Shown here: positions 2,895 to 23,984 of the stretch, one piece after another
Layout of the letters: every line of letters begins with the position of its first letter
How positions within the stretch are numbered: the first letter of the stretch is position 1
Source: a virus
Direction: 5' to 3' (one strand)
Virus record (IMG/VR): IMGVR_UViG_3300030099_000086
Location: 1 to 25,007 of that record
DNA: 25,007 nt
The notes under the pieces: model-generated
The model's database searches: none
What the model was told of the DNA's origin: nothing
Seen by the model: only the letters and a program-made list of their open reading frames with translations
Translations under genes and position numbers: made by a program

Positions 2895-3310
2895 TTGATA
2901 TTATCAGAGTGTACGGTCACGAAGAACTATACAGCTTCTTGACTGCAATTAAGTACCCGTACTTAGAAACACATAACGAAATAATTTATTATGCAAAAAT
3001 ATTTAAATTTGTACACGATCAGAATACGGCTGGATTTGTGTGGCTATATGACATCCAGGATGGGATGTTCCACACGCATCTTGTTATAGCTGACGAGTAC
3101 AAAGGAAGAATACTAACACGCAAGGTTGTAAATAATTTTTATAACTTTGCATACGGTTTGGGAGCAAAGACTTTAGTGGCAAGCCCAATACCTAAGAAAC
3201 TTATAGAACTTTACAAACGCATAGGCTGGACACAGTACAAACGTAACGAGTCCAGGCTAGACTTGCCCTACCAATGGAGAAAAAAATGGGATTTATACCA
3301 AAGCCAGTAA
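2891..3310 (+). CDS. GNAT-like acetyltransferase
   Basis: A protein of up to 139 residues with the GNAT fold pattern: a beta strand (A-G-F-V-W-L-Y), a second strand with T-H-L-V-I, then D-E-Y-K-G-R-I-L-T (about residues 75-85) as a diverged acetyl-CoA-binding loop, a helix, a strand (K-T-L-V-A-S) and the closing K-K-L-I-E-L-Y-K-R-I-G-W typical of the last GNAT helix-strand. The substrate is unknown; modification of a host or virion protein is possible. No ATG lies near the start: a TTG at 2891 overlaps the preceding stop, and GTG 2909 is an alternative. The last 25 bases overlap the start region of the next gene. A second GNAT-like gene lies at 11812-12252. Fold call fairly sure, activity unproven. 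Confidence 0.7.
   Translation: MIDIIRVYGHEELYSFLTAIKYPYLETHNEIIYYAKIFKFVHDQNTAGFVWLYDIQDGMFHTHLVIADEYKGRILTRKVVNNFYNFAYGLGAKTLVASPIPKKLIELYKRIGWTQYKRNESRLDLPYQWRKKWDLYQSQ
3276..3279 (+). promoter_or_regulatory. Ribosome-binding site deciding the start at 3286
   Basis: GGAG at 3276-3279 lies six bases before ATG 3286, while the upstream ATG at 3274 overlaps this GGAG and has no such signal. The 3286 start gives a product beginning M-G-F-I-P-K-P, matching the M-G-F-L-K-P start of the product of 2598-2894. Both points favour 3286. Confidence 0.65.
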
Positions 3311-3759
3311 TAGAATTAGTTGACAAGGTGATTGATGTTATACCTGAAGTACAAGCACCACCACCACCTGCACCCGCACCCACACCTGCACCAGTAGCAC
3401 CTACACCACCACCGCCTCCACCTGGGCCAACACCAGCAGAAATAGCAGCAGAAAAAGCTAGAAAAGAAGCTGCTGCAAAAAAAGCAGCACAAGAGGCAGC
3501 AGCTAAGAAAGCAGCAGAGGAAGCAGCTAAAAAGAAAGCAGCTGAAGAAGCAGCGGCCAAAAAAGCCGCAGAAGAAGCAGCGGCAGCCAAAGCAGCGGCA
3601 GCAGCCGACAAAGCTGCGGGAGCTACAGCAGAGCTTGGAGCATATTCTGCAACTGCAAATCAAAGTCGTATTTCAAAACAAAGAAAACCTTTGATACAAA
3701 CATCCAGTAAAGGTGTGCTTGGTGATCCTGTTATATTTAGACCAACATTGCTCGGCTAA
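3286..3759 (+). CDS. Proline-rich, Ala/Lys-helical accessory protein with LLG terminus
   Basis: A 157-residue protein of low complexity. After M-G-F-I-P-K-P and a short amphipathic segment comes a proline-rich stretch (about residues 24-47), then a long Ala/Lys/Glu helix (about 50-114) made of imperfect A-A-K-K-A-A-E-E repeats, likely a coiled coil or single helix. The C-terminal part ends D-P-V-I-F-R-P-T-L-L-G. The two ends resemble the product of 2598-2894, so the centre seems to have been expanded by repeat growth. Function unknown. The rod-like centre and place between terminase and portal suggest a head-assembly or virion linker, by inference only. Start chosen at 3286 because of GGAG and the paralogous N-terminus. 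Stop overlaps the next ATG (TAATG). Confidence 0.7.
   Translation: MGFIPKPVIELVDKVIDVIPEVQAPPPPAPAPTPAPVAPTPPPPPPGPTPAEIAAEKARKEAAAKKAAQEAAAKKAAEEAAKKKAAEEAAAKKAAEEAAAAKAAAAADKAAGATAELGAYSATANQSRISKQRKPLIQTSSKGVLGDPVIFRPTLLG
3346..3611 (+). repeat. Low-complexity coding repeat (Pro then Ala/Lys/Glu)
   Basis: The DNA is dominated first by CCA/CCT-type proline codons and then by GCA/GCT with AAA and GAA codons. It encodes the proline-rich segment and the imperfect A-A-K-K-A-A-E-E helix of the host gene. Such tracts change length easily by slippage, so length variation among relatives is expected. Confidence 0.7.
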
Positions 3760-11815: not shown

Positions 11816-12252
11816 TGCAGATTATCCCTTTTGAGTTTGAGCATGCTAAATATATTGCGTACAACGAAATGAACGCAGAAATTGTAAATGTAAAAGAAAG
11901 ATACCTAAAAAATCTTGAGCAACTTGTAAAACCTAAAACAAGTTGGACAGGAATTGTAGACGATAAGATTATTGCAGCAGGTGGCATGGTTGAATTATGG
12001 GATCATGTTTACGAAGGTTGGGTTATGGCAACAGCTGACATACAAAAACACCCCATAACAACGGCAAGAGTAATAAAAAAAATTTTTAAAAAAGTCATGG
12101 TAGAACATGACGTACATAGATTACAAACAACAGTAAAAGCAGACTATGAAGTAGGTCATAAGTTTGCAGCCTGGCTAGGTTTAGAAAAAGAAGGTTTGCT
12201 TAGAAAATACTTAGACGGCAACGATTATTATTTATATTCGAGGATATTTTAA
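11812..12252 (+). CDS. T7 gp13-like internal virion protein, GNAT-related fold
   Basis: A 146-residue protein at the T7 gene 13 position, between tail protein B and the gp14-like gene. It has a GNAT-like layout: N-terminal strand-helix, W-T-G-I-V-D-D-K-I-I-A-A-G-G-M-V (about 44-59) as the central hairpin, then helix A-R-V-I-K-K-I-F-K-K, strand R-L-Q-T-T-V-K and the closing F-A-A-W-L-G-L-E-K-E-G. The classic acetyl-CoA loop is not obvious, so catalytic activity is doubtful. In T7, gp13 is needed for infective particles and its family is related to acetyltransferases. ATG 11812 and ATG 11815 are both possible, overlapping the preceding stop. Ends in a TAATG overlap. Confidence 0.75.
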   Translation: MMQIIPFEFEHAKYIAYNEMNAEIVNVKERYLKNLEQLVKPKTSWTGIVDDKIIAAGGMVELWDHVYEGWVMATADIQKHPITTARVIKKIFKKVMVEHDVHRLQTTVKADYEVGHKFAAWLGLEKEGLLRKYLDGNDYYLYSRIF

Positions 12253-12740
12253 TGGCTACAGCAATATTAGGTGCAGGTGCATCAGTCTTAGGAGGAAGAG
12301 CTGCTGAACAAGAAGGGCAGTTTAATAGACAGATAGAACAACGTAATGCAGAAAAATTACGTCAGGATGCAGAGACTGCAATAAAACTTGGAAATAGAGA
12401 TGTCAAAATCTTTGAAAGAAAGTTTGCAAATTTGCAAGCACAGACAGAGATGGCATTTCTTAAATCAGGAGTTAGATTAGAAGGCACAGCCTTAGAAGTG
12501 CTTGAAAATAATTACGCCCTAGCAGAGCTTGAAAAAGAAACAATTAGATACAACGCAAAAGTAGAGTCAGCAGACAAAGCTGAGCTAAGTGTTATATCTG
12601 AAATGGAAGGTGAAGCAGCTTACGCTAGAGGCAAAAACAAGAAAAAATCTTCTTACTTGCAGGCAGGCAATACCTTGCTTGGTGGCGGCACACAAGCTGC
12701 TGATGCAAAGTCAAGCGGATCTAAATATTGGTGGGTATAA
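12252..12740 (+). CDS. Internal virion protein, T7 gp14-like
   Basis: A 162-residue protein at the gene 14 position. It starts with a glycine/alanine-rich hydrophobic stretch (A-I-L-G-A-G-A-S-V-L-G-G), followed by a long amphipathic helix region rich in Glu, Gln, Arg and Ala (about 17-120), and ends with a glycine-rich tail and K-Y-W-W-V. Short hydrophobic start plus long helices is characteristic of gp14-type proteins, which in T7 leave the head first and form the outer-membrane part of the ejection channel. No enzymatic motif is seen. Called from order, size and character rather than a diagnostic motif. Confidence 0.75.
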   Translation: MATAILGAGASVLGGRAAEQEGQFNRQIEQRNAEKLRQDAETAIKLGNRDVKIFERKFANLQAQTEMAFLKSGVRLEGTALEVLENNYALAELEKETIRYNAKVESADKAELSVISEMEGEAAYARGKNKKKSSYLQAGNTLLGGGTQAADAKSSGSKYWWV

Positions 12741-12743
12741 ATT

Positions 12744-14579
12744 ATGGTTAGGATTCCAGTCTATGAAACAAAAGTTGACGCAGCTCAACCTCAAAGTCGT
12801 GTTAGGCCACAATTACAAACAGGTGCGTCTGCTGTTTTTGACAACATGGCACAAGTTGCAGAGAACGCAGGGCAAATAGCAGCAACAATTCGTGAAAAAC
12901 ATACTAAGATACGAAACGATGAAGAATTTTACGAAAACATAAATAAATTACAAAAAGGTGATCCTGATAACAATATTCCAGGTTTAAACGAGTTATTTAC
13001 CACGGCATCAAGTAGCAGTGATTTTCAAAATGCACTTACAAATTACGACACATCTAGTAAAGAGTGGATCAACACACTGTCACAGAACATATCTAATGAA
13101 GCTGTCAAACAAAGATTTAATATAAGAGCTAGTGAAATAAGCACTGGTTACTATTTACAAGCTGAAAGAAGTATATATCAAAACGCCAGGCAATCTTATT
13201 TAGGAACGATTAAAGAACAAGTAAATAATGATATAAATAATTTTATCGTTGCAACAAACACAAATGATACATACGGAGCTTCCATAGCTCACGACAATCT
13301 TTTTGGAAAAATAGATAAAGACGGCAACATGTCTGTAATGTCCTATGGTCAAAGACTCGAAGACAAAGGTATGTTGCCTGATGGCACGACAGCAAAACAA
13401 TATGACGATAATGTTGAGGCTGCACTTGAAGCAACTTATGCAGCAGACCTTGTTGAAAACAATCCTGCACAGTTTTTTAAATTAGATGATCAACAATTTT
13501 TTGATACTATTGCTGCTGATAAGTTAGTTGCACTTAGAGCAAAAGCTAAAGATAATTTAAGAAATCAAACAATTAATCAATTGCTTACATTTTATCCTAT
13601 TGATGGCAACAGGGATTTTGAAGAATCACAAACAATGTTTGATGAAGCGTCAAAAGGTAATTTTGCAAACAATGAAACATTGCAAAACCTATACAATTCA
13701 CTTGATCAAGAGGGCAAAAACATATTTCAGGAGGCTATTGGTTCTAGACATAATCAACAAAAAGCAGAAATAAACGCTACAAGAGCAAATAATCAATTTA
13801 GAGAGCAAGAGGCTAACAAAGAAATTTTTGAGTCATCTTTAGAAACTGTCAATACAACTCTTACAATAAGTGAAATAAATAGCAAACAGTGGATTGGCAC
13901 TGAAGGCCTGGCTATGCAACAACAGCTTACAAATTTAGTTACAAAAAGAGAAGCAGGAGAACTGCCAACTGATGCAAACTTACAAATGTACAACCAAATT
14001 TTCCCACTTGTTGTAGATAAAAAAATTACATCTGTTACAGAGCCTTTTGCTTTACCTAATGAAAATACTCCAAAAAGTATCATGGAGCGTACAGGTGGAC
14101 AAAATGGGCTTGGTTACAATCAGTTTGCAACTTTTGCACAACTTATAAGTAACAGAAATAACCCAGATATTCTTAAACAAGAAAAAGATTTTCAAGACTT
14201 TATATCTGCATATCAGGCACAGATACTGGGTAGCCCTGCTTTATTGCAAAACAATACTTTTGCAGATGCACGATATTTTGATTTTACACTTGCTATGAGA
14301 GCTGCTTATAACAATGGATTAGCACAAGGCAAAACACCAACTGAATTATTAGTTTCAACAAGTCCTGATTTTATATTGCGTGATATTACACCTTATATAC
14401 CTAGCAATGACGAGATGATGAAAGAACTGATGAACTCTATGATACCACAAGAACAAATGCCTGAAAGTCTTGTTGAGTGGAGAGAAACAGCTCCGCAAAA
14501 ACCAGCTGATATGACTTTTGAAGATTTTCAACTTACAGACGAATACATTGAATGGATTAAAAGAAAGCCTGTAGAATGA
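12744..14579 (+). CDS. Internal virion (ejection) protein, T7 gp15-like
   Basis: A 611-residue, mostly helical, polar protein in the gene 15 position. The opening (V-R-I-P-V-Y-E-T-K-V, then a segment ending in a coil with A-G-Q-I-A-A-T-I-R-E-K) is typical of gp15-type ejection proteins in marine podoviruses. The rest alternates Gln/Asn/Glu-rich helices with no hydrophobic membrane segment and no catalytic motif I can recognise. In T7, gp15 forms the periplasmic tube with gp16. It shares an ATGA overlap with the next gene, so the two are translationally coupled, as expected for partners. Length is somewhat shorter than T7 gp15. Confidence 0.78.
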   Translation: MVRIPVYETKVDAAQPQSRVRPQLQTGASAVFDNMAQVAENAGQIAATIREKHTKIRNDEEFYENINKLQKGDPDNNIPGLNELFTTASSSSDFQNALTNYDTSSKEWINTLSQNISNEAVKQRFNIRASEISTGYYLQAERSIYQNARQSYLGTIKEQVNNDINNFIVATNTNDTYGASIAHDNLFGKIDKDGNMSVMSYGQRLEDKGMLPDGTTAKQYDDNVEAALEATYAADLVENNPAQFFKLDDQQFFDTIAADKLVALRAKAKDNLRNQTINQLLTFYPIDGNRDFEESQTMFDEASKGNFANNETLQNLYNSLDQEGKNIFQEAIGSRHNQQKAEINATRANNQFREQEANKEIFESSLETVNTTLTISEINSKQWIGTEGLAMQQQLTNLVTKREAGELPTDANLQMYNQIFPLVVDKKITSVTEPFALPNENTPKSIMERTGGQNGLGYNQFATFAQLISNRNNPDILKQEKDFQDFISAYQAQILGSPALLQNNTFADARYFDFTLAMRAAYNNGLAQGKTPTELLVSTSPDFILRDITPYIPSNDEMMKELMNSMIPQEQMPESLVEWRETAPQKPADMTFEDFQLTDEYIEWIKRKPVE

Positions 14580-17500
14580 GTTTATTAAATGATCTAGAAA
14601 ACATGCGTGCTGTGGGTGCGTCTGATGAAGAAATTCAAAAGTATAGACAAAATAAAATACTAGACATGCAAGCCGTAGGTATGTCTGACACACAAATACA
14701 AGAAGAACTTGGTCAGAAAAAAATAGACAACACAACACAAAAATCTTTTTGGAATGAAATAGAGAAAGTTAGACCACTAACACCTTACGAAGCAAAAGAA
14801 AAAAAATACATTAACAAATTGTATTCTAATCAAGATTTTATGCCTGAGCTGGAGTACACACCAGCAGGCCCAAGATTAAATAATGATACACAATTTCTTG
14901 TTGACGATTTAGAAAGAAAAACAGAATTTTCAACACAAGGCAAAATAGACAATAAGCTTGAATTTGGACGTTATTTTACAAGAGGTCTAGGTATGTCTAA
15001 TTTTAATCTTATGAAAGAATATTTTACTAATGGTTCACTACCAGAGGGATATTCACCAGATTTTACGCAGCCTAGTAGGTTTGAAAGAGTTACACAACAA
15101 ATAGGTAATATTTTAGCTGATTTGCCAATTTACGGTGCGACAGCATATTTAGCTGGTAAAGTAGAAAAAGGTAAAACAAAAGGCTTAGCACCATTATATG
15201 CAGCTGGTTTTGTTAATGGTGCAATAAGAGAAAGTTTTATACAGGCACTTGAACGTGGAGATGTTGATACATGGGGTCAATGGTGGGATATTTTTACACA
15301 TCACTCTATTGATGCTGGTAACAAAGAAGGTTTAACTTTGGCGGGGTCTGTAGGCCTTGGACAAGCTGCAAAATACGGAGCAACGAAAGCGTTAGCAAAT
15401 CCTAAACTAAACAAGTTTGGTTTACCTAGAGAGCTTGCAGCTATACCAGAATATCTAGCAACTGTTGGTGGTTTTAATATTATTGGAGGTTTGTTAGAAG
15501 GTGAAATGCCAACAAAAGATGAAGTTATTGATTCATTTTTTGTTGTTGGTGCTTTGATGGCAGGAGCAAGAGGAGCAAGCTACGGTATTGAAAGATATAA
15601 ACAAAAAATAAGAGAATCAGACAAACCGCCACACGAAACTATTATAGACATTGAAAAATCAAAAATTACGAAAGAAGATATTGTTAGTAAAAACAATCTA
15701 GATAGAACAAACAACTTTATACAATCACAAGAAAGGTTAGTTGAATTAAAAAACAAATTAGACGCAGGAAAAATTGAGTACAAAGAAAGCAAAGAATTAA
15801 AATTTTTAGAAGACCTGCAAGCTGAACAAAGAATACCTGGATCTAAAGATACAAACTTAACACCAGATACTTTTAATTCTATACCTTTGACAGAATTACT
15901 AAACGAAGGTTTTTATAACAAAAGAAAAGTAAGATCTATCTTAGAAGAAGAAGCTCTTATTAAAAATCATCCTGAAATTAAAAAACTAGAAAGAGATGCT
16001 AATGCTATACAAAGAACTGAAATTTTAGCAGAGCAGCGTGGACAATACTCTAAAGAGACAGGTTTTGCAGAAGCATGGCAAATAGAAAACAATTGGAAAA
16101 CTGTTGTAGAGGAATTGTCCAACAGAACAAACGCACCAAAAAATAAACAAGCTATAATATTATTAGGTGGTGCAGCTACAGGTAAAACAAGTTATGCAAA
16201 CAGAATAAACCAAGGCAAAGAAAAATACGAAACTATAGATCCTGACATTGTAAAAGAACACCCACAGTTTGCAGAAACTTACCAAGGCGGTAAGGGTGCA
16301 AATGCATTGCACTTAGAAAGTAAAGCTATTGCTGCAAAAATATTAAACAACGTAGTAAGCCAGGGCAAAAACTTTATATACCCTATGGTTGGTTCTGGTG
16401 GTTCAGGTAAAATGCAACAAATACTCAGTATTTTACAAAGCAAAGGGTATGACATTAACATAGCACTTTTAGAAATACCTAAGTCAGAAGCAACATACAG
16501 AGCCTTAAAAAGATCATTAGAAACAGGCAGATATGTACCACTTGACTATGTACAAAATGCTAGTAAATTTTCGGAGATAAATTATGAATACGCAAAAACA
16601 GCAAGAGAAGTTGTCGAAGCAAAAAGGGTCGACACCAGCACAGGACAACCTAAAGTTACAGAATCAAAGTCCTCTGAGTCTGTCAGAGACGATGCTGGAG
16701 CAAGACGAGACGGGTCTAGACCTAGTGATCAAGGAGTTGAGCCAGTCACCATCCAAGACAGGATAAGTTTTGAACCGCCACCTGAACCTGCTTTTAATGT
16801 TACAAAATTCAGAAATGATCTTGTAAAAGATTACATTGACAAGCTACATCCTATATTGCTTGCAGTAAGAAGAACAGAACAAGGCAAAGTACAAGGTGGT
16901 GAGTTAAATGTTTACGAACAACAAAGAATACAGCCTGGCATGGTTGGACGTGCTGAACATTTTATTAATACAGGTACACTAAAATTAGCTGATCTTTCTT
17001 TAGTTGGAAAAGGTTTGTTTGATATTTTATCTCCTTTAAAAAATATTACACAATACAAAGCATTTAGTGAATATGCTGTTGCAAAAAGAGTTTTAGAATT
17101 ATCTCAAAGAGGAATAGAGACTGGTGTTGATATTACAAAAGCAAGGCAAGTTGTAAAAAATGGCAAAGAACAGTTTGAATCAATATTTAGAGAAATAAAT
17201 CAGTACAATATAGAATTACTAAATTACCTTAGAGATGCAGGCATAATAAATCAAAAATCATACAAAGTTATGTTAGAGGCTAACAAAGACTATGTACCGT
17301 TTGGTAGAGTTATGGAAGAAGGCAACGTAGGCGGTAGTATTGGTAAATCAGTAAGTAACCCTTTAAAAAAAATAAAAGGCAGTGAAAGAACTATAATTGA
17401 TCCTATAGAAAGTATTTTTAAAAATACATATCATTTTGTTACACTTGCAGAAAGAAATATTGCAAACAGAAATTTTATTGACTTTACACAAAAATATAAA

Positions 17501-19339
17501 TCAGAATTTCCTGAAGTATCAAAAGTAACTGGCAAAGGTAAAGCTATTCAAATAAAAAAAGGTGAACTGGATAATGTTTTAAGTGATGCTGCAAAAGCTG
17601 ATATTGCAACATTAGACAATTTAACAATATTTAGAAGAGATGGCCAAAAAGCAACTGACACACAAATAGTTGTTTTTAGAAATGGTAAAAAAGAAATATG
17701 GGAAGTAGGCAGAGAATATGCAGAGGTAATAAATGGTGCTAATGCTTCAGCAGCAAGTGCATTAGTTAAATTTATGGCAATACCCGCAAGATGGTTAAGA
17801 TCAGGTTCAACTCTTGCACCAGATTTTTTTATGAGAAACCTACTCAGAGATACAAGCACAGCTGGTATCTTTACAAAATCTGGCAAAGGCATAGGAGGAT
17901 TGCCTATAATAACTACTTTGCGTGGTTTGACTTACATGGTGTTAGGCAGAAACAAAAAAAATGCAGATTCTGTAATTAGAGATTTTGAAAAATCAGGTGC
18001 TATGCAATCAATGCTAGTTAGCTTTGATAGAAAATATTTTGACAAAAAAATACAAAATGAATTGTACAATACGCCAGTACGCAATCTTATAAAAAGCCCA
18101 CTTGAAAGTTTACGAATTTTGTCTGAGTTAGCAGAGCAAACTACTAGGGTTGCTGAATTTAACTCAGCCTATAAAAAAGCTAAGTCACAGGGTTTATCAG
18201 AAAGAGATGCCTTACAAAGAGCTGGTTTTGAAGGAAGAGATATAACTATTGATTTTGCAAAAATAGGAGCAAAGATGCAGGCAACTAATATGATAGTTGC
18301 ATTTATTAATGCAAGAGTGCAAGGATATGCAAAATTATTTGAGTCTTTTAGAGATCAGCCACTTACAACTTCTGCTAGAATATTTACGCAAATTATGTTG
18401 CCTTCTGCTTTGCTGTGGTATGTCAACAAAGATGACCCTGTATATAAAGCGTTACCAAGATGGCAAAAAGATTTATTCTATATTGTTATAGTAGGAGAGG
18501 GTGATGATGCAACTGTTTATAGAATACCAAAACCATTTGAGCTTGGTGTTGTATTTGGAACAGGTACAGAAAAACTTTTAGATTTTATAACAAAAAGGTC
18601 AGAATCAGAAGACATTGCACAGTTTGTTGGTGATTTATTAGAAGACAATGCAAAAGGTATGTTGCCAATTCCACAAATTCTTTTGCCTTTTGTAGAAAAT
18701 TATTTCAATAAAAGTTTATTTACTGGTCAAGCAATCGTACCAAGAGGCACTGAAAATATTTTGCCAGAGTATCAATTTACACCTTACACAAGTCAAATAT
18801 CAAAGGCTTTAGGTTCAATAATTGCAGAAATAGATCCTACGACACCTTTTGCATCACCTGCTAGAATAGACGCACTTATTAGAGGTTGGACAGGAACATT
18901 AGGTAATTATGCAGTACAAATTGCAGACGCTGCTTTAATTAAATCTGGTATTATCGAAGATCCTGTAAAACCAACAAAAACACTTGCCGATATACCTTTT
19001 ATCAAAGCGTTTGTTGTACGAAACCCTTCATCTGGTTCTGAATTTATAGAAAAATTTTATGAATTATATGGGCCTATGGCACAGGCAACAGCTACCGTAC
19101 AAGAGGTTCAAGATCCACAAGCTAAAATTGATGTTTTAAATTATATACAAGATGACTTAGGAGTTGAAACATTAGGTCTTGAAGGCACGGCAAAAGCCTT
19201 GGCAAACATTAGAAAATACATTGCAGCGGTATATAACAACAAAAGCATAAGCCCTGATGAAAAAAGGGAGCTTATAGACGACTCATACAGGATGATGATT
19301 GAAATGGCTAAAAATGCTGTTGAAGCATTTGATAAATAA
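14576..19339 (+). CDS. Polyvalent gp16-like ejection protein with zeta-toxin-like kinase domain
   Basis: A 1,587-residue protein in the gene 16 position, coupled to the gp15-like gene. Order: two short helical repeats (10-21, 31-42); a Gly/Ala-rich hydrophobic-helix region (about 175-335) that could contact membrane; a charged coiled region (about 340-480); a zeta-toxin-like domain (about 490-665); a polar linker (about 675-735); a helical region; and a C-terminal part (about 1060-1500) like the large-polyvalent-protein domain LPD38, with P-D-F-F-M-R-N-L-L-R-D (1082-1092) and R-I-P-K-P-F-E-L-G. In the kinase part I see Walker A G-G-A-A-T-G-K-T (531-538), I-D-P-D (554-557), H-P (562-563) and T-G-R-Y-V-P (650-655). 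Family members phosphorylate UDP-N-acetylglucosamine. I infer ejection with the DNA. No T7-type transglycosylase motif is seen. Confidence 0.8.
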   Translation: MSLLNDLENMRAVGASDEEIQKYRQNKILDMQAVGMSDTQIQEELGQKKIDNTTQKSFWNEIEKVRPLTPYEAKEKKYINKLYSNQDFMPELEYTPAGPRLNNDTQFLVDDLERKTEFSTQGKIDNKLEFGRYFTRGLGMSNFNLMKEYFTNGSLPEGYSPDFTQPSRFERVTQQIGNILADLPIYGATAYLAGKVEKGKTKGLAPLYAAGFVNGAIRESFIQALERGDVDTWGQWWDIFTHHSIDAGNKEGLTLAGSVGLGQAAKYGATKALANPKLNKFGLPRELAAIPEYLATVGGFNIIGGLLEGEMPTKDEVIDSFFVVGALMAGARGASYGIERYKQKIRESDKPPHETIIDIEKSKITKEDIVSKNNLDRTNNFIQSQERLVELKNKLDAGKIEYKESKELKFLEDLQAEQRIPGSKDTNLTPDTFNSIPLTELLNEGFYNKRKVRSILEEEALIKNHPEIKKLERDANAIQRTEILAEQRGQYSKETGFAEAWQIENNWKTVVEELSNRTNAPKNKQAIILLGGAATGKTSYANRINQGKEKYETIDPDIVKEHPQFAETYQGGKGANALHLESKAIAAKILNNVVSQGKNFIYPMVGSGGSGKMQQILSILQSKGYDINIALLEIPKSEATYRALKRSLETGRYVPLDYVQNASKFSEINYEYAKTAREVVEAKRVDTSTGQPKVTESKSSESVRDDAGARRDGSRPSDQGVEPVTIQDRISFEPPPEPAFNVTKFRNDLVKDYIDKLHPILLAVRRTEQGKVQGGELNVYEQQRIQPGMVGRAEHFINTGTLKLADLSLVGKGLFDILSPLKNITQYKAFSEYAVAKRVLELSQRGIETGVDITKARQVVKNGKEQFESIFREINQYNIELLNYLRDAGIINQKSYKVMLEANKDYVPFGRVMEEGNVGGSIGKSVSNPLKKIKGSERTIIDPIESIFKNTYHFVTLAERNIANRNFIDFTQKYKSEFPEVSKVTGKGKAIQIKKGELDNVLSDAAKADIATLDNLTIFRRDGQKATDTQIVVFRNGKKEIWEVGREYAEVINGANASAASALVKFMAIPARWLRSGSTLAPDFFMRNLLRDTSTAGIFTKSGKGIGGLPIITTLRGLTYMVLGRNKKNADSVIRDFEKSGAMQSMLVSFDRKYFDKKIQNELYNTPVRNLIKSPLESLRILSELAEQTTRVAEFNSAYKKAKSQGLSERDALQRAGFEGRDITIDFAKIGAKMQATNMIVAFINARVQGYAKLFESFRDQPLTTSARIFTQIMLPSALLWYVNKDDPVYKALPRWQKDLFYIVIVGEGDDATVYRIPKPFELGVVFGTGTEKLLDFITKRSESEDIAQFVGDLLEDNAKGMLPIPQILLPFVENYFNKSLFTGQAIVPRGTENILPEYQFTPYTSQISKALGSIIAEIDPTTPFASPARIDALIRGWTGTLGNYAVQIADAALIKSGIIEDPVKPTKTLADIPFIKAFVVRNPSSGSEFIEKFYELYGPMAQATATVQEVQDPQAKIDVLNYIQDDLGVETLGLEGTAKALANIRKYIAAVYNNKSISPDEKRELIDDSYRMMIEMAKNAVEAFDK

Positions 19340-22360: not shown

Positions 22361-22392
22361 TTTAAAAGGAGAAAACTATGGCAATAACAAAA
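22361..22392 (+). repeat. 32-base direct repeat, copy 1
   Basis: Covers the ribosome-binding site and first codons of the 97-residue partner gene: TTTAAAAGGAGAAAAC, one variable base, then ATGGCAATAACAAAA. It matches 23716-23747 at 31 of 32 bases, far above the similarity of the rest of the paired genes. Confidence 0.9.
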
Positions 22393-22671
22393 GAAGTAAA
22401 AAATGATAAGATTGAAATAGTAACTGATTATAAAAATATTCAAGTAAGAGAGGCTACTATTATATCTGAAGATGGTAAACAAATTAGTAAATCTTTTACT
22501 AATCGTTATGTTTTAGATCCAGGATCTTTAGACACTAGCAATAATTTAGTAGATACAGATGTCTCAGGTGAATCAGAAGAAGTGCAAGCAATAGCAAACG
22601 CAGTATGGACTGATTCTGTTAAGACGCTTTGGAAAAATAAATTAATAGCTGACAAGGCTAAAAGAGGATAA
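22378..22671 (+). CDS. MAITK-type small fibre-locus protein, first paralogue
   Basis: A 97-residue protein: M-A-I-T-K, K-I-E-I-V-T-D-Y-K (11-19), I-Q-V-R-E-A-T (about 21-27), E-D-G-K-Q-I-S-K-S (about 31-39), and a closing helix with E-E-V-Q-A-I-A-N-A-V-W-T-D. It is paralogous to the product of 23733-23984, and similar small proteins are common in phage fibre loci. Function is not known to me. Its repeated position directly after an adhesin gene suggests a partner or chaperone, by inference. Compared with the paralogue it has a short insertion in the middle (L-D-T-S-N-N-L-V-D-T region). Confidence 0.7.
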   Translation: MAITKEVKNDKIEIVTDYKNIQVREATIISEDGKQISKSFTNRYVLDPGSLDTSNNLVDTDVSGESEEVQAIANAVWTDSVKTLWKNKLIADKAKRG

Positions 22672-23715: not shown

Positions 23716-23747
23716 TTTAAAAGGAGAAAACAATGGCAATAACAAAA
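23716..23747 (+). repeat. 32-base direct repeat, copy 2
   Basis: Second copy of the repeat at 22361-22392, differing by one base, again covering the ribosome-binding site and first codons of an MAITK-type gene. Possible recombination boundary between cassettes. Confidence 0.9.
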
Positions 23748-23984
23748 ACAACAGAAATAGCAAAGATAGAAATAGTCGGAGAGTATAAAGCTGTGCAAGT
23801 CAGAACCGATACTGTCATCAAAGAAGATGATAAAGAAATATCACGCTCAATACATAGACACGTTGTCCACCCTGATATGGATATATCTGGTGAAGATGCA
23901 GAAGTACAAGCAGTAGCAAATGCAGTTTGGACTGATGACGTAAAAACTGCATGGACTGAATTTATAGCTAATCAAACTATATAA
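23733..23984 (+). CDS. MAITK-type small fibre-locus protein, second paralogue
   Basis: An 83-residue paralogue of the product of 22378-22671: M-A-I-T-K, K-I-E-I-V-G-E-Y-K, V-Q-V-R-T-D-T, E-D-D-K-E-I-S-R-S, a central R-H-V-V-H-P, then E-V-Q-A-V-A-N-A-V-W-T-D-D-V-K-T. The first 15 coding bases and the leader are almost identical to the other copy, whereas the rest has diverged. It follows the 347-residue adhesin by 17 bases. A partner or assembly role is inferred from repeated pairing; no enzymatic motif is visible. Confidence 0.7.
   Translation: MAITKTTEIAKIEIVGEYKAVQVRTDTVIKEDDKEISRSIHRHVVHPDMDISGEDAEVQAVANAVWTDDVKTAWTEFIANQTI

What the first reader, a model, noticed from the sequence alone, without database searches (positions are those of the whole stretch)
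16050..16580. Zeta-toxin-like kinase domain inside a probably injected virion protein
Seen: at residues about 490-665 of the 1,587-residue protein there is Walker A G-G-A-A-T-G-K-T (531-538), a following I-D-P-D (554-557) with H-P (562-563), a helix-strand, K-G-Y-D-I-N-I (623-629) and R...R...T-G-R-Y-V-P. This order parallels zeta/PezT toxins. Known: zeta toxins phosphorylate UDP-N-acetylglucosamine and block wall synthesis; polyvalent phage proteins combining effector domains with LPD modules have been described. Inferred: the kinase enters the cell with the DNA and acts before phage genes are expressed, perhaps on host wall precursors or rival phages. Odd: the Glu expected on the strand after the helix seems replaced (F-I-Y-P-M-V), followed by a second Gly-rich G-S-G-G-S-G-K (606-612); no antitoxin gene is visible.
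Basis: partly seen in the sequence, partly recalled or inferred. Interest (0 to 1): 0.75.

Follow-up and report, generated by a model that had tools for sequence, protein, structure and literature searches.

The report
Zeta-like kinase inside phage ejection protein
A marine short-tailed phage carries an extra enzyme module, a kinase with the fold of bacterial zeta toxins, inside the large protein it probably pushes into the host cell with its DNA, so the enzyme could act before any phage gene is switched on; what it phosphorylates is unknown and may not be the cell-wall precursor that zeta toxins attack.

Summary
Every motif lies at the stated residue. Residues 518-675 of the 1,587-residue protein match Pfam Zeta_toxin (E 3e-14), and the predicted structure's best PDB matches are zeta and PezT (Z 15.8 and 15.7). 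The protein is the third of a gp14/gp15/gp16-like ejection set in an HTVC034P/HTVC010P-type podovirus and ends in an LPD38-containing module.

The kinase sits in an insert (about residues 375-722) between two modules that about 80 relatives carry joined by a short linker. It occurs in one clade only. There the kinase core is the best-conserved part (60% identity where the flanks have 41-56%), under purifying selection. Walker A, the catalytic Asp and two LID Arg are invariant.

The wall-precursor inference is weaker. The strand Glu is Pro in every member, and most reported UDP-contact residues of zeta are replaced. The second Gly-rich motif is not a P-loop. No antitoxin was found.

Delivery is inferred, but a sequence test supports it: the gp14-, gp15- and gp16-like proteins contain no cysteine in about 159,000 residues, as in T7 gp15/gp16 and N4 vRNAP. 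Zeta-like kinases in injected polyvalent proteins were already described (Iyer 2017). New here are the podoviral ejection-protein cassette and the altered substrate side.

The parts
12252..12740 (+). gp14-like internal virion (ejection) protein, 162 aa
   Evidence: phrog_418 internal virion protein, E 4e-16; no Cys in it or in 65 homologues
12744..14579 (+). gp15-like ejection protein, 611 aa
   Evidence: position between gp14-like and gp16-like genes as in HTVC034P and T7; no family hit; no Cys in it or in 70 homologues
14576..19339 (+). gp16-like ejection protein with inserted kinase, 1,587 aa
   Evidence: ORF; LPD38 and Zeta_toxin; synteny with pelagiphages; no Cys
14576..15697 (+). N-module, residues 1-374, conserved in relatives without the kinase; hydrophobic segments within 176-339
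   Evidence: blastp against relatives; hydropathy
15698..16741 (+). Inserted cassette, residues 375-722; its first part (375-480) is predicted helical
   Evidence: absent from about 80 relatives, present in one clade; model
16073..16672 (+). Zeta-fold kinase, residues 500-699
   Evidence: Pfam 518-675; structure matches to 1gvn, 3q8x, 2p5t
16166..16189 (+). Walker A, GGAATGKT, residues 531-538 (Lys537 = zeta Lys46)
   Evidence: GG[AS]ATGK[ST] in all members
16235..16246 (+). IDPD, residues 554-557; Asp557 = zeta catalytic Asp67
   Evidence: alignment with 1gvn; invariant
16373..16411 (+). Strand FIYPMV with Pro603 at the Glu116 position of zeta, then GSGG loop, residues 600-612; not a P-loop
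16496..16540 (+). LID-region YR..KR....GRYVP, residues 641-655, with the two invariant Arg
16742..19336 (+). C-module, residues 723-1587, common to the whole family
   Evidence: model of it too poor to use
18434..19003 (+). LPD38 domain, residues 1287-1476
   Evidence: PF18857, E 6e-38

Best explanation
A zeta-fold P-loop kinase has been inserted once, as a cassette, into the linker between the two conserved modules of a gp16-like ejection protein in one clade of HTVC034P/HTVC010P-type marine podoviruses, and it is kept as a working enzyme. The protein is packed in the virion and ejected with the DNA. The kinase, lying just after the first hydrophobic region (where T7 gp16 is modelled to enter the cytoplasm), reaches the cytosol, uses host ATP and phosphorylates a small host molecule, probably a nucleotide-containing metabolite, during the first minutes of infection. 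No antitoxin is needed, because the protein is made late and ejected only into new cells. Shown: domain, fold, insertion, single clade, selection, conserved catalytic residues, altered second-substrate side. Inferred: packaging, ejection, cytosolic location, catalysis, class of substrate, timing.
For: Family and fold. Gene order as in HTVC034P, Lederberg and T7. Insert between modules that relatives carry joined; kinase-bearing proteins form one clade; six relatives have no such kinase elsewhere in their records. Kinase core is the most conserved part, 60.6% against 41-56%, dN/dS 0.15-0.19. Walker A, catalytic Asp and LID Arg invariant to haloviruses and Bacteroides phages. No Cys in about 159,000 residues of the three ejection-protein classes, as in T7 gp15/gp16 and N4 vRNAP, a feature linked to injection in the N4 literature. 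T7 topology from PMC8954989.
Against: No proteomics or activity data. The acidic strand residue present in the other zeta-like copies is lost, which could impair catalysis. Absence of cysteine is a correlate of ejection, not proof. T7-like topology is assumed; the C-module has no recognisable solved relative.
Confidence: 0.6

Rival explanations
1. It is a true zeta-type UDP-GlcNAc kinase. On injection it traps UDP-GlcNAc or another UDP-sugar of wall or LPS synthesis, loosening the wall for DNA entry or stopping host envelope growth, as Iyer et al. 2017 proposed for zeta-like domains in polyvalent proteins.
For: Closest solved relatives by sequence and fold are the UNAG kinases zeta and PezT; Asp67 equivalent kept; published proposal; other zeta toxins use several UDP-sugars with a different binding mode.
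Against: Glu100, Arg120 and Thr128 of the UNAG site are replaced, Thr118 is Val or Ser depending on the alignment, Glu116 is Pro, all across the clade; related copies occur in haloarchaeal viruses, whose hosts lack peptidoglycan (hosts from general knowledge).
Confidence: 0.25
2. The domain has lost catalysis and serves as a structural or binding module of the ejection protein.
For: Loss of the acidic strand residue in the whole clade.
Against: Walker A, Asp557 and both LID Arg invariant; core better conserved than the rest of the protein; purifying selection; relatives do without the domain.
Confidence: 0.12
3. The kinase acts in the producing cell late in infection, for example by weakening the wall before lysis, and its presence in an ejection protein is incidental.
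For: The gene lies among the structural, presumably late, genes, so many copies are made before lysis (inference).
Against: It is inserted inside an ejection protein rather than kept as a separate gene; the cassette has no Cys in any member.
Confidence: 0.1

Closest known systems
Zeta/PezT toxins (PF06414; PDB 1gvn, 3q8x, 2p5t)
   Same: Profile match, fold, Walker A, catalytic Asp, LID Arg
   Different: No antitoxin, domain embedded in a virion-type protein, substrate-side residues replaced
Zeta-like kinases in polyvalent proteins (Iyer et al. 2017, PMC5512222)
   Same: Zeta-like domain in a large multidomain protein with an LPD, encoded among virion genes, presumed injected
   Different: Described there in conjugative elements and fused to MuF in phages; here an insert in a gp16-like podoviral ejection protein with LPD38
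MuF-type and portal-type zeta fusions: cyanophage PSS2 gp30, halovirus HCTV-1 gp109 beside a gpF gene, portal fusion L105
   Same: Zeta-like domain tied to a virion gene
   Different: Head/portal carriers, acidic strand residue kept in those aligned (L105, L108, L012), PSS2 protein has Cys
HTVC034P gp44, Lederberg_8 and HTVC204P gp40 ejection proteins
   Same: N-module, C-module, LPD38 in two of them, gene order
   Different: No kinase cassette
AvrRxo1, an NAD 3'-kinase of zeta fold
   Same: Same fold (Z 13.8); an injected effector whose substrate is not UDP-GlcNAc
   Different: Type III effector of plant pathogens with its own inhibitor; no sequence relation tested here

Membership tests
Zeta_toxin (PF06414) kinase domain family | Profile score over the curated cut-off | tested here: met
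   53.4 bits against 22.3; L022 44.9
Zeta_toxin (PF06414) kinase domain family | Zeta fold | tested here: met
   Predicted model: Z 15.8 to 1gvn_B, 15.7 to 2p5t_F
Zeta_toxin (PF06414) kinase domain family | Walker A Lys and catalytic Asp (Lys46, Asp67) | tested here: met
   Lys537 and Asp557, invariant
UDP-GlcNAc kinases (zeta, PezT) | UNAG-contact residues Glu100, Thr118, Arg120, Thr128 | tested here: not met
   Glu100, Arg120, Thr128 replaced in both alignments; Thr118 Val or Ser depending on the alignment
UDP-GlcNAc kinases (zeta, PezT) | Phosphorylation of UDP-GlcNAc | not testable with these tools
   needs an enzyme assay
Epsilon/zeta or PezAT toxin-antitoxin system | Adjacent antitoxin gene | tested here: not met
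   The gene overlaps the gp15-like gene upstream and a tail-fibre gene follows; no antitoxin family among the window's small proteins scanned
Polyvalent proteins (Iyer et al. 2017) | Enzymatic domain plus LPD in one large protein encoded among virion genes | tested here: met
   Zeta_toxin and LPD38 in 1,587 aa; structural neighbours
Polyvalent proteins (Iyer et al. 2017) | Injection with the DNA | not testable with these tools
   Indirect only: no Cys, gene order
gp16-like podoviral ejection proteins | Last and largest of a gp14/gp15/gp16 gene order | tested here: met
gp16-like podoviral ejection proteins | Sequence or fold similarity to a solved ejection protein | tested here: inconclusive
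   No hit; C-module model poor, pLDDT 59

The most novel reading that the evidence does not exclude
An injected zeta-fold kinase with a new substrate (a nucleotide, NAD-type or defence-signal molecule, not UDP-GlcNAc), carried as an exchangeable effector cassette in the DNA-ejection machine and acting before phage transcription.
Probability: 0.3. Interest if true: 0.75.

Novelty: new variant of a known kind. Interest (0 to 1): 0.5.

Why it matters
It suggests that the podoviral DNA-ejection machine, not only MuF or portal proteins, can carry a zeta-fold kinase into cells, and it gives a natural with/without set of phages to test what such kinases do in the first minutes. The clade-wide change on the substrate side makes the assumed wall-precursor target directly testable. 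The absence of cysteine gives a sequence-only sign that a large phage protein belongs to the ejected class.

Tried and rejected
Second P-loop at 606-612: rejected, Lys lost in L023. Antitoxin in the neighbourhood: none found. Bacterial chromosomal source of the domain: the two scans of genome contigs gave no relative or one weak hit (L106), and a family search of 148 genomes of that phylum gave only 3 strong Zeta_toxin hits, so the origin is unknown. C-module against solved structures: no match by sequence or by fold (model too poor to count). Claim that Thr118 is replaced by Val: withdrawn to 'Val or Ser', because the phmmer and profile alignments differ in that loop. Host: relatives infect Pelagibacter, but the kinase clade has higher G+C (35-38% against 31-32%) and the window has no tRNA, so the host is left open. 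Literature: no paper in the library holds 'zeta toxin' together with 'pelagiphage' or 'internal virion protein'.

Full report
Observation. The ORF at 14576-19339 (+) encodes 1,587 residues. Residues 518-675 score 53.4 bits against Pfam Zeta_toxin (cut-off 22.3, E 3e-14), and the six-frame search of the record gives 57.8 bits. phmmer against PDB sequences ranks S. pyogenes zeta (1gvn) first, E 6e-6. A model of residues 376-722, built from nine sequences of this window and fetched loci (mean pLDDT 76), has as its best PDB matches zeta, PezT and UNAG-bound zeta (Z 15.8, 15.7, 15.6), then AvrRxo1 (13.8) and bacterial polynucleotide kinase (12.5). The zeta-like region spans residues 500-699.

Carrier. 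The window is a podovirus structural region: small and large terminase, portal, major capsid, tail tubular A and B, a GNAT-like protein, internal virion protein, then two large genes and tail fibres. The gene order equals that of Pelagibacter phages HTVC034P and Lederberg and parallels T7 genes 14, 15, 16. The 1,587-aa protein is therefore gp16-like by position. Its C-terminal part carries LPD38. Distant phages carry the same C-terminal region in proteins annotated as DNA methylase, DarB-like or RelA/SpoT, so it behaves as a carrier of varied effectors.

Insert. HTVC034P, Lederberg, HTVC204P and most relatives from IMG/VR have the N-module (about 1-374) and the C-module (from about 723) joined by a linker of about 35-100 residues, without a kinase. 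The kinase cassette is found in the window and in seven other contigs: those of L002, L003, L017/L020, L018/L019, L022, L023 and L104. In a tree of 87 C-modules the seven kinase-bearing rows (L104 not included) form one clade with support 100, one change on the tree. Records of six relatives without the cassette contain no such kinase elsewhere.

Selection and exchange. Between the window and L022 the kinase core is 60.6% identical, the N-module 40.8% and the C-module 47-56%. dN/dS in the kinase is 0.15-0.19 among members about 80% identical there. Sliding identity shows exchange at module borders. Window and L002 are 91-100% identical up to about residue 720, mostly 70-88% to about 1360, then 91-97%. 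L022 and L023 are about 90-100% identical over nearly all of the protein, but 67-91% over residues 466-630, within the kinase. The kinase segment is thus both constrained and exchanged.

Active site. By the alignment with 1gvn, zeta Lys46 and Asp67 correspond to Lys537 and Asp557. Asp67 is the proposed catalytic base, and its PezT equivalent Asp66 is needed for activity (PMC3062530). Both are invariant, as are two Arg of the LID region, across the marine clade, a halovirus, a Bacteroides phage and a portal-fused copy. The substrate side differs. The strand residue at Glu116 is Pro in all clade members, while every other zeta-like copy that aligned there has Asp or Glu. Of the residues reported to contact UNAG (Glu100, Thr118, Arg120, Thr128), Glu100, Arg120 and Thr128 are replaced in both alignments; Thr118 is Val or Ser depending on the alignment. 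The same fold phosphorylates UDP-GlcNAc at 3', UDP-sugars at 4' or NAD at 3', so the fold alone does not give the substrate.

Delivery. No virion proteomics for this clade was found in the sources held. An independent sequence sign was found. Across fetched relatives, 86 gp16-like (108,242 aa), 70 gp15-like (40,840 aa) and 65 gp14-like proteins (10,253 aa) contain no cysteine, while neighbouring tail, GNAT and fibre proteins contain 0.19-2.2%. Given codon composition, the gp16-like protein of the window would be expected to have about 20. T7 gp15 and gp16 and N4 vRNAP, gp51 and gp52 also have none; T7 gp14 has one. For N4-type vRNAPs this had been noted and tied to injection (PMC3915230, PMC2784036). 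Carriers of other effectors, in Pondi (2,192 aa), MinM2 (2,803), X14 (2,714, start cut) and Pascal (1,672), have none either, whereas the zeta-bearing head protein of cyanophage PSS2 has four. The sign is supportive, not proof.

Mechanism. In T7, gp16 residues after the first hydrophobic region are modelled in the cytoplasm (PMC8954989). The cassette lies just after the hydrophobic segments at 286-339, so a cytosolic kinase with access to ATP is plausible by analogy. About a dozen copies of the comparable protein are injected by P22 (abstract); at a turnover such as the 200 per second reported for gonococcal zeta on UDP-MurNAc a dozen copies could convert a few thousand molecules per second, enough to matter in a very small marine cell (inference). 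No antitoxin is found, and none would be needed for a late protein released into new cells (inference).

Known and new. Iyer et al. 2017 already describe zeta-like kinases in polyvalent proteins, fused to MuF in phages, and propose wall weakening. The present case is a new variant: an insert in a gp16-like podoviral ejection protein with LPD38, confined to one clade, with a changed substrate side. No paper in the library joins zeta toxins with pelagiphages or internal virion proteins.

Noticed in passing
window 12252-19339 and 86 relatives: The gp14-, gp15- and gp16-like proteins of this phage group contain no cysteine at all (about 159,000 residues), like T7 gp15/gp16 and N4 vRNAP/gp51/gp52; effector-bearing LPD38 carriers of other phages up to 2,803 aa also have none. 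Possible general sign of ejected proteins; known for N4 vRNAP.
   Followed up: partly
window 14576-18811 against L002; L022 against L023: Recombination edges near module borders: window/L002 identity drops after about residue 720 and recovers near 1360; in L022/L023 mainly the kinase segment (466-630) is exchanged.
   Followed up: partly
L105 3643-6834; L108: A portal protein fused to a zeta-like kinase, with a further large structural gene downstream; a second contig of the same metagenome (L108) carries a 77% identical kinase.
   Followed up: partly
L125 3786-8285; L012 2057-5552: Cyanophage PSS2 gp30 (1,499 aa head protein) and halovirus HCTV-1 gp109, next to a gpF gene, carry zeta-like domains; the halovirus host has no peptidoglycan, which argues for other substrates.
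   Followed up: partly
L011 4787-8124 (HTVC010P): The gp16-like region of the HTVC010P record is split over several ORFs (377, 182 and 505 aa), either a real gene split or frameshifts in the record.
   Followed up: no
window 22378-22671 and 23733-23984: Two similar small proteins (97 and 83 aa, both starting MAITK) each follow a tail-fibre-like gene, perhaps fibre-associated partners.
   Followed up: no
window 3274-3759: 161-aa ORF made largely of Pro-rich and Ala/Lys/Glu repeats between the terminase and portal genes.
   Followed up: no
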